A model generated the notes under the pieces. It saw only the letters and a list, made by a program, of their open reading frames with translations, searched no databases and was not told where the DNA came from. A stretch of 64,000 nt of DNA from Paracoccaceae bacterium. Lineage in GTDB: Bacteria; Pseudomonadota; Alphaproteobacteria; Rhodobacterales; Rhodobacteraceae. Positions within the stretch are counted from its first letter, which is position 1. The number at the start of each line of letters is the position of its first letter. A program made the translations under genes and the position numbers. The DNA lies in NCBI GenBank assembly GCA_020628545.1, contig JAHDEX010000001.1, positions 1-64,000 of the forward strand, in the 5' to 3' direction. Positions 8,992-12,898 of the stretch are shown here, in pieces.

Positions 8992-9606
8992 TCAGTAAAG
9001 CCCGCTTTCGCGCGCGATCATGGCAGCCTGGGTTCGATTGGATGCGCCGATCTTACGATAAAGCGTTTTCATGTGAAGTTTTACAGTCGGCTCCTGGATC
9101 GCCAGATCGCGTCCAATTTCTTTGTTCGACTTTCCTTCGGTCAACCCTTTCAGGACCTGCATCTCTCGCTGGGTCAATTGTTCCGCAAGAGGATGAACGG
9201 CCGTCTCATTTGTTGACGTCATGAAATCAATCGGGGCGAATTGCTCACCATTGGCCATTAGGCGCACGGCGTTGATCAGTGATTTGGCCGGCATCGATTT
9301 TGGTACGAATCCCGCAGCACCCGCGGCAAGAGCTTCTTTCACGACAGCTTGCGTGGCCTGCCCCGAGATCAACGCGACCTTCTGCCCTTCGACCAAAGCC
9401 ATGGCTTGTTTGACGCCCTGTACGCCCTGCATTCCCGGCATGTTGAGATCCAAGAGAACAAGATCAAAGGCTTTTTCCGTGGTCATCAGCGTCATTGCTT
9501 CACGGAAAGTCCCTGCGGTGGCCACCTCAAAACCGGCCTCGCCCTGCAGATACAACACCAATGTGTCGCGCAGCAGTTCGTGATCATCCGCGATGAGTAT
9601 GCGCAT
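8992..9606 (-). CDS. LuxR/NarL-type response regulator
   Basis: This is a two-component response regulator of 204 residues. The receiver domain (about residues 1-120) has the acidic pair at D7-D8, the probable phosphorylated aspartate D53 (LLDLNMPG), and the conserved lysine in FVPKSMPA. A GerE/LuxR helix-turn-helix at about 138-200 reads LTQREMQVLKGLTEGKSNKE followed by IGR. It is transcribed away from the SUOX-fold protein and the hybrid kinase. The kinase ends in an HPt domain but has no DNA-binding output, so this regulator is its natural partner. This pairing is inferred from position. Confidence 0.88.
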   Translation of the reverse strand: MRILIADDHELLRDTLVLYLQGEAGFEVATAGTFREAMTLMTTEKAFDLVLLDLNMPGMQGVQGVKQAMALVEGQKVALISGQATQAVVKEALAAGAAGFVPKSMPAKSLINAVRLMANGEQFAPIDFMTSTNETAVHPLAEQLTQREMQVLKGLTEGKSNKEIGRDLAIQEPTVKLHMKTLYRKIGASNRTQAAMIARESGLY

Positions 9607-9822
9607 CTTTGCCCTGTATCATTCGTTTTGCCCCATAGCTGATATGTCAGGAATCATACCGTCAAACAATGGATCAAGGTCGATCTGCGACCATTCTTCC
9701 ACCTGATCTCGCCGGTCCCACCCCACCTCATATCCTATCCTTTCGGGTATGTTGGGTATCCCGATGCCCAGATTACAACTTACAAGAGTATGATAGGCTT
9801 TCAGGGCATGGAAGGAGTTTTG

Positions 9823-10338
9823 ATGACGCGCACGTTGGCAGCGGCATTCATGGCTGCAAGTTTTGTAGCCACTACAGTCACACCATTGGCGGCCGATACC
9901 CTCCCCGAACCTTCGGGGCCTGTGGTTTTGACCGTGACGGGACCTATTGGTGTGACCAACGTAGGCGATACGCTGCAACTTGATCGTGACGCTTTCGAGA
10001 AGATGGACCAAAGCCAATTTGTCACAACGACAGTCTGGACTGAGGGCCTCCACGAGTTTCAAGGGGTATCGCTCCTCTCGCTCACGGAATTACTGGACGT
10101 GTCGGAAGGCACGCTTCTTGCGAAAGCCGTCAATGATTACACCGTCGAAATTCCGGTATCGGATGCCGTCGAGGATGGCCCGATCATTGCCTACAAGATG
10201 GACGGCGAATTAATGTCCATCCGCGATAAGGGACCGCTTTGGGTGGTTTACCCGTATGACAGCAATCCGGACTACCGGACTGCTGTCATACATTCGCGCA
10301 GCATTTGGCAACTCGACAGGATTGAGGTCGTCAAGTAA
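9823..10338 (+). CDS. Secreted SUOX-fold (molybdopterin-binding-like) protein without cysteine
   Basis: This is a 171-residue exported protein. A Sec-type signal peptide covers about residues 1-25 (TRTLAAAFMAASFVATTVTP, cleavage near LAADT). The body resembles the oxidoreductase molybdopterin-binding (SUOX/YedY) fold, with segments such as FQGVSLLSLTELLDV, AVNDYTVEIPVSD and GPLWVVYPYD. True members hold molybdenum through one cysteine, but this protein contains no cysteine at all. It therefore cannot be a normal molybdoenzyme and is more likely a periplasmic ligand sensor. GGAG precedes the ATG at 9823, so that start was taken over an in-frame one at 9790. The hybrid kinase starts 37 bases downstream. 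Confidence 0.7.
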   Translation: MTRTLAAAFMAASFVATTVTPLAADTLPEPSGPVVLTVTGPIGVTNVGDTLQLDRDAFEKMDQSQFVTTTVWTEGLHEFQGVSLLSLTELLDVSEGTLLAKAVNDYTVEIPVSDAVEDGPIIAYKMDGELMSIRDKGPLWVVYPYDSNPDYRTAVIHSRSIWQLDRIEVVK

Positions 10339-10375
10339 CCCTAGGGTGACCTTCGCGCAGCATTGAAAGCTCACC

Positions 10376-12898
10376 GTGGCGCAACAGCATGTCGCAGAAC
10401 AAAGACGTTTGCGCCTGATTGCAGGCGCGGCGATCATTCTTGGGTTATCGGCAATCATTTTCCTCGCCATCAGCGTGCTGCGGCAAGTGAATGCGCTGGA
10501 CCAGAATGCTTTCGACAGCGCGCAGTGGTCTTTGTCACAGACAGAAGTCGAGTTTCTGGAATATGCCCGCGCCGTCGACAGCGCGACGCCAGAGGTCGAT
10601 ACGATCCGTTTGCGGTTCGATATCTTTTACAGTCGTGTCATCACGCTCAAGAACGCGCGGGTGTTTGCGCCGCTTCGAGACGACGCCGATTTTGCTTCCG
10701 AACTCGCTCAAGTTGATCTCTTCCTTGACCAATCAACGCCCTTGATCGACGGACCGGACACGCAGTTGATTGAAGAACTCGCGGCGCTCAATACCTTCAT
10801 TTCCGAGGCGAGGGGCAGTGTGCGGCAGCTATCGCTTTCTGGCCTTGATCGTTACACCCGGTTTCTCGATCAACAAAAGCTGCAGGTGTCGCTGACAACT
10901 GCTCAATTGGTGGCAGTGATCGTCGCACTTTTTGCAGGGCTCGCAATCGCACTCTTGCAGATGGACAGGCTTAACAATCAAGCGGCGGAACGCGAGGCAG
11001 CTTTGCAGCAGTCAAACTCGCGCTTGAACACCGTGATTGGAACGGCGCTTGACGGTGTGCTTGTGACTGATGCCGATATGCAGATCATCGATTTTAGTCC
11101 GGCAGCAGCAGATATTTTTCAATGCTCACCCGAGATTGCGATGGGCCGTCACTTCTTCGATTTCTGCTCTGTTGGTCCGCCCACAAATGATGAAGTTGCC
11201 AAATCGGACGCGCTCCAGACCATTCTGGAGGCAAAAGGCCGTATGAAGGGCACGGGTTTCACGCTTGAAGGACGCTCCTTTCCGATCGAGTTCGCGTTTC
11301 AAAGCGCCAAGACGCCAACTGGTGACATCCACATTGCCTTTGTGCGTGACATCTCTGCGCGTGAGGCCGCAGAAGAAGAATTAGTCGCTGCCAGAGATGC
11401 GGCGCTCGCAAGTGAAAGACTGAAATCGGACTTCCTGGCCACAATGAGCCATGAAATCCGCACACCGCTCAACGGGCTGATCGGCAATATGGACCTGTTG
11501 GGCGATACGGGCTTATCGCCACATCAGGCCCGGTACCTTGATAACATGTCGGCTTCTGGCCGCATGCTAATGCAACACGTGTCAGACGTGCTCGACATCA
11601 CGCAATACGATGCCGGCAAGTTGACGGTCTCACCCGTGGTCACCAACCTGTCCGCATTGATTGAAGACGTCGTTTTGACGCAGCGTGGCTTGGCGGAAGC
11701 GCATGAGACCTCATTGTGCTGGCATTGGGAGGGGCCACCCCTGGAATGGGTCAGCGTTGACGCAAGCAGATTGCAACTGATCTTGATGAATCTTGTCGGC
11801 AACGCGGTGAAATTTACGCGCGCGGGCCGCGTGACCGTCACTGCAACGCATGAGAATGCCGACGGTGCGGACCATGTTCGTTTCGAAATTGCAGACACCG
11901 GCCCTGGGATCGATCCAGAGCAGCTGCCACATGTATTTGATGATTTCTTCACAGGCGATGCCAGCGAGTCGCGTGACGTTGACGGATCAGGCTTGGGTCT
12001 CGGGATCGCCCGCAGGTTCGCGACGGCCTTAGGCGGGCAGATCGGCATCGACAGCGAGCTTGGCTCTGGAAGCACGTTTTCTGTGACTATTCCCGTCGAC
12101 ATAGCGGAGGCCCCAAGCGGCGTCACACCCCCGGATGACACGCCCGTTGCGCCACCGCAGCATGTTCTTGTTGTTGAGGACAATGCCATCAATCGCACAG
12201 TGGTACGGGATATGCTGATGGCGGACGGCCATCGCGTGACAGAGGCGGTCGACGGTAAAACCGGGCTGGCTATTGCCCAGGCAACCCAGTTCGACCTTAT
12301 CCTGATGGATATCAGCATGCCGCAGCTTGATGGCCGTGAAGCCGCGCAGCGGATTGTCAGTGGTGACGGCGCATCGCGCAACGCGCCAATTGTTGCCCTG
12401 ACGGCCAATGTGTTTGTAAGCGATGCACCCGGCTTTCAGGCTTGTGGAATTGTTGCGACAGTCGTCAAACCTCTTCGCAGAGATGCTTTGCGCGGCGCTT
12501 TGCTGGATGTCGCGTTGCCGCCCACGATCTCTGGCCCGTCGATCCTCGCCGATCATTTGTCTGAAACCTGCGAAACGCTTGGGCCAGCTTTTGAGGCAAC
12601 TATGAAACGGTTTTCGAACGAGGTTGATGTTTTCATCAAGCAGTTCACCGCCATGCCTCGTGCGCCGTTCGAGGAAATCGCCGATGCCGCCCACAAGGTT
12701 GCGGGATCATGCGCACTGTTTGGCGTTTGGCGCCTGCAGCAAGCGCTGCTCATGGTGGAAGAAACTGCGCGAGAGCGGAATGGCATTGGCCTCCACCACT
12801 TGCGACAGCAGCTACCCGAACTTTGGAACCAAGCACAGCACGCTCTGCAAGCGCATGCTTCCACTTTGACGGCAGAAAGTACTTCCATCGAAACTTGA
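10376..12898 (+). CDS. Hybrid histidine kinase with PAS, receiver and HPt domains
   Basis: This is a membrane sensor kinase of 840 residues. Two transmembrane segments at about 12-35 and 176-198 enclose a periplasmic domain of about 140 residues. A PAS domain (about 220-330) follows, then the dimerisation domain with phosphorylatable H359 (MSHEIRTPLNG), an ATPase domain with NAVKFT and DTGPGID boxes (to about 570), a receiver with D645 (LMDISMP), and an HPt domain with H773 (AAHKVAGSC). This layout makes a full phosphorelay. The start is a GTG with no strong ribosome site. The gene follows the SUOX-fold protein, and the LuxR regulator is divergent. The likely chain is periplasmic sensor, kinase, HPt, LuxR regulator. 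Confidence 0.88.
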   Translation: MAQQHVAEQRRLRLIAGAAIILGLSAIIFLAISVLRQVNALDQNAFDSAQWSLSQTEVEFLEYARAVDSATPEVDTIRLRFDIFYSRVITLKNARVFAPLRDDADFASELAQVDLFLDQSTPLIDGPDTQLIEELAALNTFISEARGSVRQLSLSGLDRYTRFLDQQKLQVSLTTAQLVAVIVALFAGLAIALLQMDRLNNQAAEREAALQQSNSRLNTVIGTALDGVLVTDADMQIIDFSPAAADIFQCSPEIAMGRHFFDFCSVGPPTNDEVAKSDALQTILEAKGRMKGTGFTLEGRSFPIEFAFQSAKTPTGDIHIAFVRDISAREAAEEELVAARDAALASERLKSDFLATMSHEIRTPLNGLIGNMDLLGDTGLSPHQARYLDNMSASGRMLMQHVSDVLDITQYDAGKLTVSPVVTNLSALIEDVVLTQRGLAEAHETSLCWHWEGPPLEWVSVDASRLQLILMNLVGNAVKFTRAGRVTVTATHENADGADHVRFEIADTGPGIDPEQLPHVFDDFFTGDASESRDVDGSGLGLGIARRFATALGGQIGIDSELGSGSTFSVTIPVDIAEAPSGVTPPDDTPVAPPQHVLVVEDNAINRTVVRDMLMADGHRVTEAVDGKTGLAIAQATQFDLILMDISMPQLDGREAAQRIVSGDGASRNAPIVALTANVFVSDAPGFQACGIVATVVKPLRRDALRGALLDVALPPTISGPSILADHLSETCETLGPAFEATMKRFSNEVDVFIKQFTAMPRAPFEEIADAAHKVAGSCALFGVWRLQQALLMVEETARERNGIGLHHLRQQLPELWNQAQHALQAHASTLTAESTSIET

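What the first reader, a model, noticed from the sequence alone, without database searches (positions are those of the whole stretch)
8992..12898. Cysteine-free SUOX-fold protein as a probable sensor for an HPt phosphorelay
The secreted protein at 9823-10338 looks like the SUOX/YedY molybdopterin fold, but its 171 residues include no cysteine, so the molybdenum ligand is absent. It sits directly ahead of a hybrid kinase with a periplasmic domain and an HPt domain, with a LuxR-type regulator divergent. This suggests a former molybdoenzyme fold reused as a periplasmic input protein.
Basis: partly seen in the sequence, partly recalled or inferred. Interest (0 to 1): 0.75.

Follow-up and report, generated by a model that had tools for sequence, protein, structure and literature searches.

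The report
Pterin-sensor kinase system tied to exopolysaccharide
The finding is a known type of bacterial sensor: a periplasmic pterin-binding protein (PruR) paired with a histidine kinase. In many related bacteria this sensor sits inside a sugar-polymer (exopolysaccharide) gene cluster whose promoters share one DNA motif, which points to what the sensor may control.

Summary
The 171-aa protein at 9823-10338 has no cysteine and matches solved "Pterin Binding Protein" structures at E about 2e-32. It is a PruR homologue. PruR is published as a cysteine-less, SUOX-fold, pterin-binding periplasmic regulator, and PruR paired with a histidine kinase is published as "PruR-DTB" (PMC13259868). The kinase has that class's features: a DcpA-type periplasmic domain (hhalign 97.7%), WX7E at residues 51-59 and a TorS-like core.

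What I did not find in print is the output. In relatives the kinase ends in an HPt domain (43 of 44 tails). In 37 of 74 named loci the triad regulator / PruR / kinase lies in an exopolysaccharide locus. The palindrome CTATMCNNNNGKATAG lies near pruR in 65 of 74 loci (reversed control 2). In those 37 loci, 107 of 109 sites fall in four promoters. In an even family sample only 9 of 84 loci show such genes nearby. In the window's genome the triad lies outside the exopolysaccharide locus and its site is weaker (10/12); that locus has three 11/12 sites but its own regulator. Pterin binding, phosphotransfer and DNA binding are inferred.

The parts
8992..9606 (-). NarL/FixJ-type response regulator (P0003), likely output of the phosphorelay
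   Evidence: REC and GerE domains; lies in a 61-row set (support 100/99) with all 37 regulators from exopolysaccharide loci in the tree
9735..9750 (.). Palindrome CTATCCTTTCGGGTAT, 10 of 12 to CTATMCNNNNGKATAG, between the regulator and pruR
   Evidence: alone not striking in the window (5 matches with up to 2 mismatches, 1.73 expected, 4 of 100 shuffles reach 5); supported by position and by relatives
9823..10338 (+). PruR homologue: secreted-looking, cysteine-free SUOX-fold pterin-binding protein; conserved Trp72, Asn104, Tyr106
10376..12898 (+). DTB-type hybrid histidine kinase: periplasmic domain - PAS - HisKA - HATPase - REC - HPt
10487..10900 (+). DcpA-type periplasmic sensor domain (about residues 38-175, limits by eye)
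   Evidence: hhalign against five DcpA-type N-termini 97.7%, E 1.7e-12
10526..10552 (+). WX7E motif, W51-SLSQTEV-E59
   Evidence: W in 70 of 72 and E in 69 of 72 aligned kinases
11423..11617 (+). HisKA (residues 350-414)
11759..12100 (+). HATPase_c (residues 462-575)
12164..12499 (+). Receiver domain (residues 597-708)
12611..12829 (+). HPt domain (residues 746-818), histidine 773 at 12692-12694

Best explanation
The locus is a PruR-DTB pterin-sensing phosphorelay. A reduced pterin in the periplasm loads PruR. Loaded PruR binds the DcpA-type periplasmic domain of the kinase (the WX7E region being the likely contact) and changes its kinase/phosphatase balance. Phosphate passes HisKA His to REC Asp to HPt His773 to the divergent NarL-type regulator. 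That regulator binds a CTATMC-N4-GKATAG palindrome in its own/pruR promoter region and, in many relatives, in the promoters of an exopolysaccharide cluster. Shown by sequence: families, domains, gene adjacency, the palindrome and its promoter positions, and the exopolysaccharide linkage in relatives. Inferred: the ligand, the direction of signalling, phosphotransfer, which protein binds the palindrome, and whether in this genome the triad still acts on the unlinked exopolysaccharide locus.
For: PruR: matches 7rkb, 7kos/7kou, 7kp2 and 7kom at E 2.4e-32 to 4.3e-20; no Cys; Asn104 in 77 of 85, Asp in the other 8. DTB: WX7E present; profile match to DcpA-type N-termini; TorS-like core as best NCBIfam match by E-value. 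HPt in 43 of 44 tails. Output: in 74 loci whose PruR was not in the set used to derive the motif, a divergent regulator within 3.5 kb in 68, a palindrome of at least 11/12 near pruR in 65 (reversed control 2), 153 sites against 7 for the reversed control in 1.42 Mb; in 37 exopolysaccharide loci 107 of 109 sites lie in the pruR (37/37), wza/wzx (30/33), regulator/pcp (29/37) and wecG (11/37) promoters. In the family-wide sample palindrome and linked regulator go together: 28 of 44 with a regulator, 3 of 40 without, Fisher p 6e-8. Own genome: 3 of 11 sites with at most one mismatch lie in the exopolysaccharide locus C35:31954-46498.
Against: No ligand or binding data. No pteridine-reductase match over the model's cut-off in the own genome (best 165 against 288 bits), but 0 of the 14 control genomes passes either, so this says little. 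The window's palindrome is only 10/12. In the own genome the palindrome overall is no commoner than its reversed control (11 sites against 17). The own exopolysaccharide locus has a different regulator (50% identical, outside the 61-row set) next to a PAS hybrid kinase and a FIST protein. 30 of 65 named loci with full flanks are not in an exopolysaccharide locus, and in the family-wide sample only 9 of 84 have such genes within the fetched stretch. 16 of 44 family loci with a linked regulator lack a site of at least 11/12 near pruR.
Confidence: 0.75

Rival explanations
1. In this genome the triad has left the exopolysaccharide regulon: it regulates only itself or unknown genes, and the exopolysaccharide locus answers to its own regulator and PAS hybrid kinase.
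For: The own exopolysaccharide locus encodes a separate regulator and hybrid kinase. The window triad sits beside Gfo/Idh-type oxidoreductase and UxuA genes, a left flank shared with L171. The window palindrome is weaker.
Against: The window regulator is nested among regulators of exopolysaccharide loci, and regulators with either HTH type (EPT.KLH and QEV.KLH) have this palindrome upstream in relatives, so cross-regulation is possible.
Confidence: 0.3
2. PruR here senses something other than a pterin, or acts unliganded as a structural co-sensor.
For: No ligand was tested; a pteridine reductase was not established in the genome.
Against: The Asn that the review ties to the pterin site appears kept; a FolB/FolX-type aldolase is present, although that is also a housekeeping folate enzyme.
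Confidence: 0.15
3. The palindrome is bound by another regulator that merely co-occurs with the triad.
For: Association is by gene linkage only; 3 of 40 loci without a linked regulator also have the site.
Against: Strong association with the linked regulator and a site between the regulator and pruR; a two-fold symmetric site suits a NarL-type dimer (general knowledge).
Confidence: 0.1
4. The protein is an active molybdoenzyme of the SUOX/YedY type, with the kinase as a bystander.
For: PF00174 match just over the cut-off.
Against: No cysteine at all; best solved relatives are called pterin-binding proteins; kinase adjacency in 69 of 84; the genome has a separate PF00174 protein of ordinary score, with cysteine.
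Confidence: 0.02

Closest known systems
PruR-DTB systems (PruR plus DcpA-type periplasmic domain fused to a TorS/BaeS-like kinase; example Ruegeria pomeroyi WP_011045932.1), PMC13259868
   Same: Two-gene order, cysteine-less PruR, WX7E, PAS-HisKA-HATPase-REC
   Different: The review's main text holds none of the words HPt, response regulator or exopolysaccharide; these features are added here
PruR-DcpA of Agrobacterium tumefaciens (PMC13259868)
   Same: PruR homologue (PDB 7kos is A. tumefaciens PruR according to the review) and homologous periplasmic domain (against DcpA-type proteins of other Alphaproteobacteria; A. tumefaciens DcpA itself was not compared)
   Different: Kinase and phosphorelay instead of GGDEF/EAL output; the surface-polymer link would be transcriptional instead of through c-di-GMP
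SUOX/YedY (MsrP) molybdoenzymes
   Same: Pfam family PF00174
   Different: No cysteine, shorter protein
Rcs phosphorelay of enterobacteria (general knowledge)
   Same: Works alike in outline: envelope sensor, hybrid kinase, HPt, NarL/FixJ-type regulator, polysaccharide genes
   Different: Different sensor parts; no membership claimed or tested

Membership tests
PruR | Homology to solved pterin-binding PruR proteins | tested here: met
PruR | About 170 aa with N-terminal secretion signal | tested here: inconclusive
   171 aa; the signal peptide was judged by eye only
PruR | Molybdenum-ligating Cys absent | tested here: met
   no Cys anywhere
PruR | Trp in place of that Cys | tested here: inconclusive
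   Trp72 is aligned with a Trp of 7kos/7rkb and kept in 67 of 85, but that it is the Trp meant by the review is my inference; a profile alignment to the genome's own YedY-like protein gave no usable match (1.8%)
PruR | Conserved Asn (102 in A. tumefaciens) at the pterin site | tested here: met
   Asn104 aligned with the Asn of the NDY segment of 7kos; equating this with residue 102 is inferred, full-length numbering not seen
PruR | Binds (tetrahydro)pterins | not testable with these tools
   -
PruR-DTB | pruR directly upstream of the regulator gene, one operon | tested here: met
   37-bp gap, same strand; transcription not tested
PruR-DTB | DcpA-type periplasmic domain with WX7E | tested here: met
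PruR-DTB | TorS/BaeS-like kinase in the cytoplasm | tested here: met
   best NCBIfam match TIGR02956 TorS, 319 bits, below its equivalog cut-off of 676.5
PruR-DcpA | GGDEF/EAL output domains | tested here: not met
   kinase domains instead
PruA-dependent pterin pathway | PruA pteridine reductase in the genome | tested here: inconclusive
   model NF006598 (accession recalled; the tool shows it as PRK09135): 42 SDR-type matches, best 165 bits against cut-off 288; 0 of 14 control genomes over the cut-off; genome 94% complete
SUOX/YedY molybdoenzyme | Catalytic cysteine | tested here: not met

The most novel reading that the evidence does not exclude
In Roseobacter-group bacteria, periplasmic pterins control exopolysaccharide synthesis by a complete phosphorelay: PruR, a DTB kinase with HPt, and a NarL-type regulator acting on one palindrome repeated across the exopolysaccharide promoters. 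This would parallel, without c-di-GMP, the pterin control of surface polymers in Agrobacterium, so that pterin sensing has been tied to surface polysaccharide through two different output modules.
Probability: 0.65. Interest if true: 0.7.

Novelty: new member of a known kind. Interest (0 to 1): 0.5.

Why it matters
PruR-DTB systems are described as widespread, yet the review text I read names no response regulator and no target genes for the kinase branch. An operator candidate present near pruR in 65 of 74 loci, and exopolysaccharide promoters that carry it, make the output directly testable. It also suggests that the link between extracellular pterins and surface polysaccharides does not depend on c-di-GMP.

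Tried and rejected
Active molybdoenzyme: rejected, no cysteine. DcpA-type c-di-GMP output: not met in the window; 1 of 84 family loci has a GGDEF/EAL neighbour by motif. That PruA exists in this genome could not be said. The own-genome scan for the palindrome gives no overall excess (11 against reversed control 17); of the eight sites outside C35, seven lie inside longest ORFs and one (C113:44334) does not; two of the three C35 sites also lie in the 5' end of a longest ORF, which I take for over-extended starts. Promoters of the WecG fusion: 11 of 13 have at least 10/12, but seven of these loci had served to derive the motif; among the six others it is 4 of 6; among 17 other sugar-transferase promoters 2 of 17. 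L170 has no site of at least 11/12. Cluster 3 looks like antisense ORFs and was ignored. Six of the 80 named loci were dropped before counting because their PruR is identical to one in the first set; the other 74 may still include near relatives of that set. A plain pattern search for WX7E found it in 67 of 74; the aligned count is W 70 and E 69 of 72. HPt was scanned on 43 of 68 relatives' tails plus the window. The tree's root is for drawing only and the place of the own exopolysaccharide regulator is unsure (long branch). Aligning the PruR profile to the own YedY-like protein failed.

Literature: searches. Only PMC13259868 was opened (outline, passages, sections 7 and 8); the others were seen as search listings. 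The original PruR research paper was not held (its DOI was recalled and may be wrong).
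Full report
Observation. Pfam gives PF00174 just over its cut-off for the small protein, HisKA, HATPase_c, Response_reg and PAS for the kinase, and REC plus GerE for the regulator. HPt misses its cut-off by 0.2 bits on the full protein but scores 30 bits on the C-terminal 150 residues. In an alignment of 44 tails (window and 43 of 68 relatives) the HPt histidine, 773 here, is invariant, and 43 of 44 tails match Hpt at E 0.01 or better.

What the small protein is. It matches four solved sequences named as pterin-binding or Oxidored_molyb proteins: 7rkb and 7kos/7kou at E about 2.5e-32, 7kp2 at 1e-23 and 7kom at 4e-20 (a profile gives 4e-50 for 7kos). A 2026 review (PMC13259868; outline, passages and sections 7 and 8 read) describes PruR. 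It is periplasmic, about 170 aa, SUOX-like, lacks the molybdenum-ligating Cys and has Trp instead, and binds reduced pterins. The review says that one common configuration pairs PruR with a DcpA-type periplasmic domain carrying WX7E, fused to a TorS/BaeS-like kinase (PruR-DTB, example from Ruegeria pomeroyi). Over 85 aligned homologues, window included, 80 have no Cys after the signal region. Trp72 is kept in 67, and Asn104 in 77 with Asp in the other 8; the review mentions an Asn-to-Asp change in some groups. Which Trp replaces the Cys I infer; a direct profile alignment to the genome's own YedY-like protein gave no usable match.

What the kinase is. Residues 51-59 read W-SLSQTEV-E. Across 72 aligned kinases (window included) W is present in 70 and E in 69. 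The N-terminal profile of 35 kinases matches that of five DcpA-type N-termini (four annotated as EAL-domain proteins behind a PruR-like gene, one from an unannotated record) at 97.7% probability, E 1.7e-12, with these motifs in register. The best NCBIfam match by E-value is TorS, below its equivalog cut-off.

How general the arrangement is. In 120 sampled genomes of the family, 67 have a match to the small protein. I fetched the 85 non-own places listed. 84 gave an ORF; 69 are followed by a kinase, 1 by a GGDEF/EAL protein, 4 by other or short ORFs and 10 by none within the rules used; 44 of 84 have a linked NarL-type regulator. A named scan gave 80 loci, mostly from Rhodobacteraceae/Roseobacteraceae. 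After dropping six duplicates, 71 of 74 have the kinase and 68 a divergent regulator within 3.5 kb.

The operator candidate. Between the regulator and pruR, k-mer counts showed a palindrome. With CTATMCNNNNGKATAG, 21 of 41 regions (window included) score at least 11/12 against a shuffled mean of 0.07 (the same sequences as used for derivation). In the 74 other loci, 65 have a site of at least 11/12 near pruR (reversed pattern: 2), and the whole loci hold 153 sites against 7 for the reversed pattern in 1.42 Mb. In the family sample, 28 of 44 loci with a linked regulator have the site near pruR against 3 of 40 without (Fisher p 6e-8). The window's own site, 9735-9750, is 10/12 and would not stand out alone.

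The output. In 37 of the 74 loci (35 of the 65 with full flanks) the triad lies inside an exopolysaccharide cluster, counted as a WecG homologue plus a Pcp or Wzy homologue. The layout is wzy and pcp, then the regulator, then divergently a WecG-sugar-transferase fusion, often galU, pruR and the kinase, then wza and divergently wzx. The labels rest on Pfam for the own locus: Poly_export (wza), Polysacc_synt_3 (wzx), WecG plus Bac_transf; pcp only on a sub-cut-off GNVR match; wzy had no Pfam match and is my reading. GalU matches NTP_transferase. Of 109 sites of at least 11/12 in these loci, 107 fall in four promoters: pruR 37 of 37, wza/wzx 30 of 33, regulator/pcp 29 of 37, wecG 11 of 37. Promoters of the WecG fusion carry a site of at least 10/12 in 11 of 13 genomes. 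Seven of these 13 loci had served to derive the motif; among the other six it is 4 of 6, including one genome without a PruR match. Other sugar transferases have it in 2 of 17. In the even family sample the linkage is rarer: 9 of 84 have such genes within the fetched stretch.

The window's own genome. The triad is not in the exopolysaccharide locus; its left neighbours are UxuA and a Gfo/Idh-type oxidoreductase, its right neighbour a FAD-dependent oxidoreductase/GCV_T protein. A genome scan gave 11 sites with at most one mismatch, no excess over the reversed control (17), but three near-identical ones lie within 12 kb on C35. That stretch, C35:31954-46498, is the exopolysaccharide locus, with the sites before wzx/wza, pcp and wecG. 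It has its own regulator, 50% identical to the window's, next to a PAS hybrid kinase and a FIST protein. On a tree of 70 regulators the window's one lies within a 61-row set (100/99) that holds all 37 exopolysaccharide-locus regulators; its sister is L171, also outside such a locus and sharing the window's left flank. The simplest reading is that the triad moved out of the exopolysaccharide locus in this sublineage, while the locus kept palindromes under another regulator. Whether the window's regulator still acts there is open.

Mechanism and certainty. Shown: homology, domain order, conserved motifs, gene neighbourhood, palindrome positions. Inferred from PruR literature: reduced pterin loads PruR, and PruR contacts the kinase's periplasmic domain. 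Inferred from domain order: His-Asp-His-Asp relay to the regulator. Inferred from linkage: the regulator binds the palindrome and sets exopolysaccharide transcription. The sign of regulation is unknown.

Novelty. Class known; window triad a new member. I found no report of the regulator, the operator or the exopolysaccharide link in the searches (listings), nor the words exopolysaccharide, response regulator or HPt in the review's main text. The original PruR research paper and its supplements were not available to me, so part of this may be recorded there.

Noticed in passing
   Followed up: partly
L133 4364-9109 (G000:C35:40364-45109): Own exopolysaccharide locus carries a FIST-domain protein, a PAS hybrid kinase and a second NarL-type regulator, possibly another sensor module in the place PruR-DTB has in relatives. 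The FIST protein is not NosP by the NCBIfam cut-off (24.9 against 450).
   Followed up: partly
L251 3938-7745: Agrobacterium plasmid pAtCFBP6625b: a PruR-like gene followed by two genes annotated 'response regulator', on a plasmid typed conjugative. 626 plasmid records match the window's PruR, 263 of them Klebsiella.
   Followed up: no
L109 (G007:C32:52392-52859): PruR-like stretch with three in-frame stops, probably a decayed copy.
   Followed up: no
L185, L187, L194, L207, L220 upstream of pruR: A galU-like gene (NTP_transferase) lies directly upstream of pruR even outside full exopolysaccharide loci; 32 of 74 loci have it there.
   Followed up: partly
L231, L237: PruR with palindrome and regulator but no kinase found directly downstream.
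   Followed up: no
L204, L213: Records titled Nocardioides marinus and Enemella evansiae hold Roseobacter-type loci; probably misnamed or contaminated assemblies.
   Followed up: no
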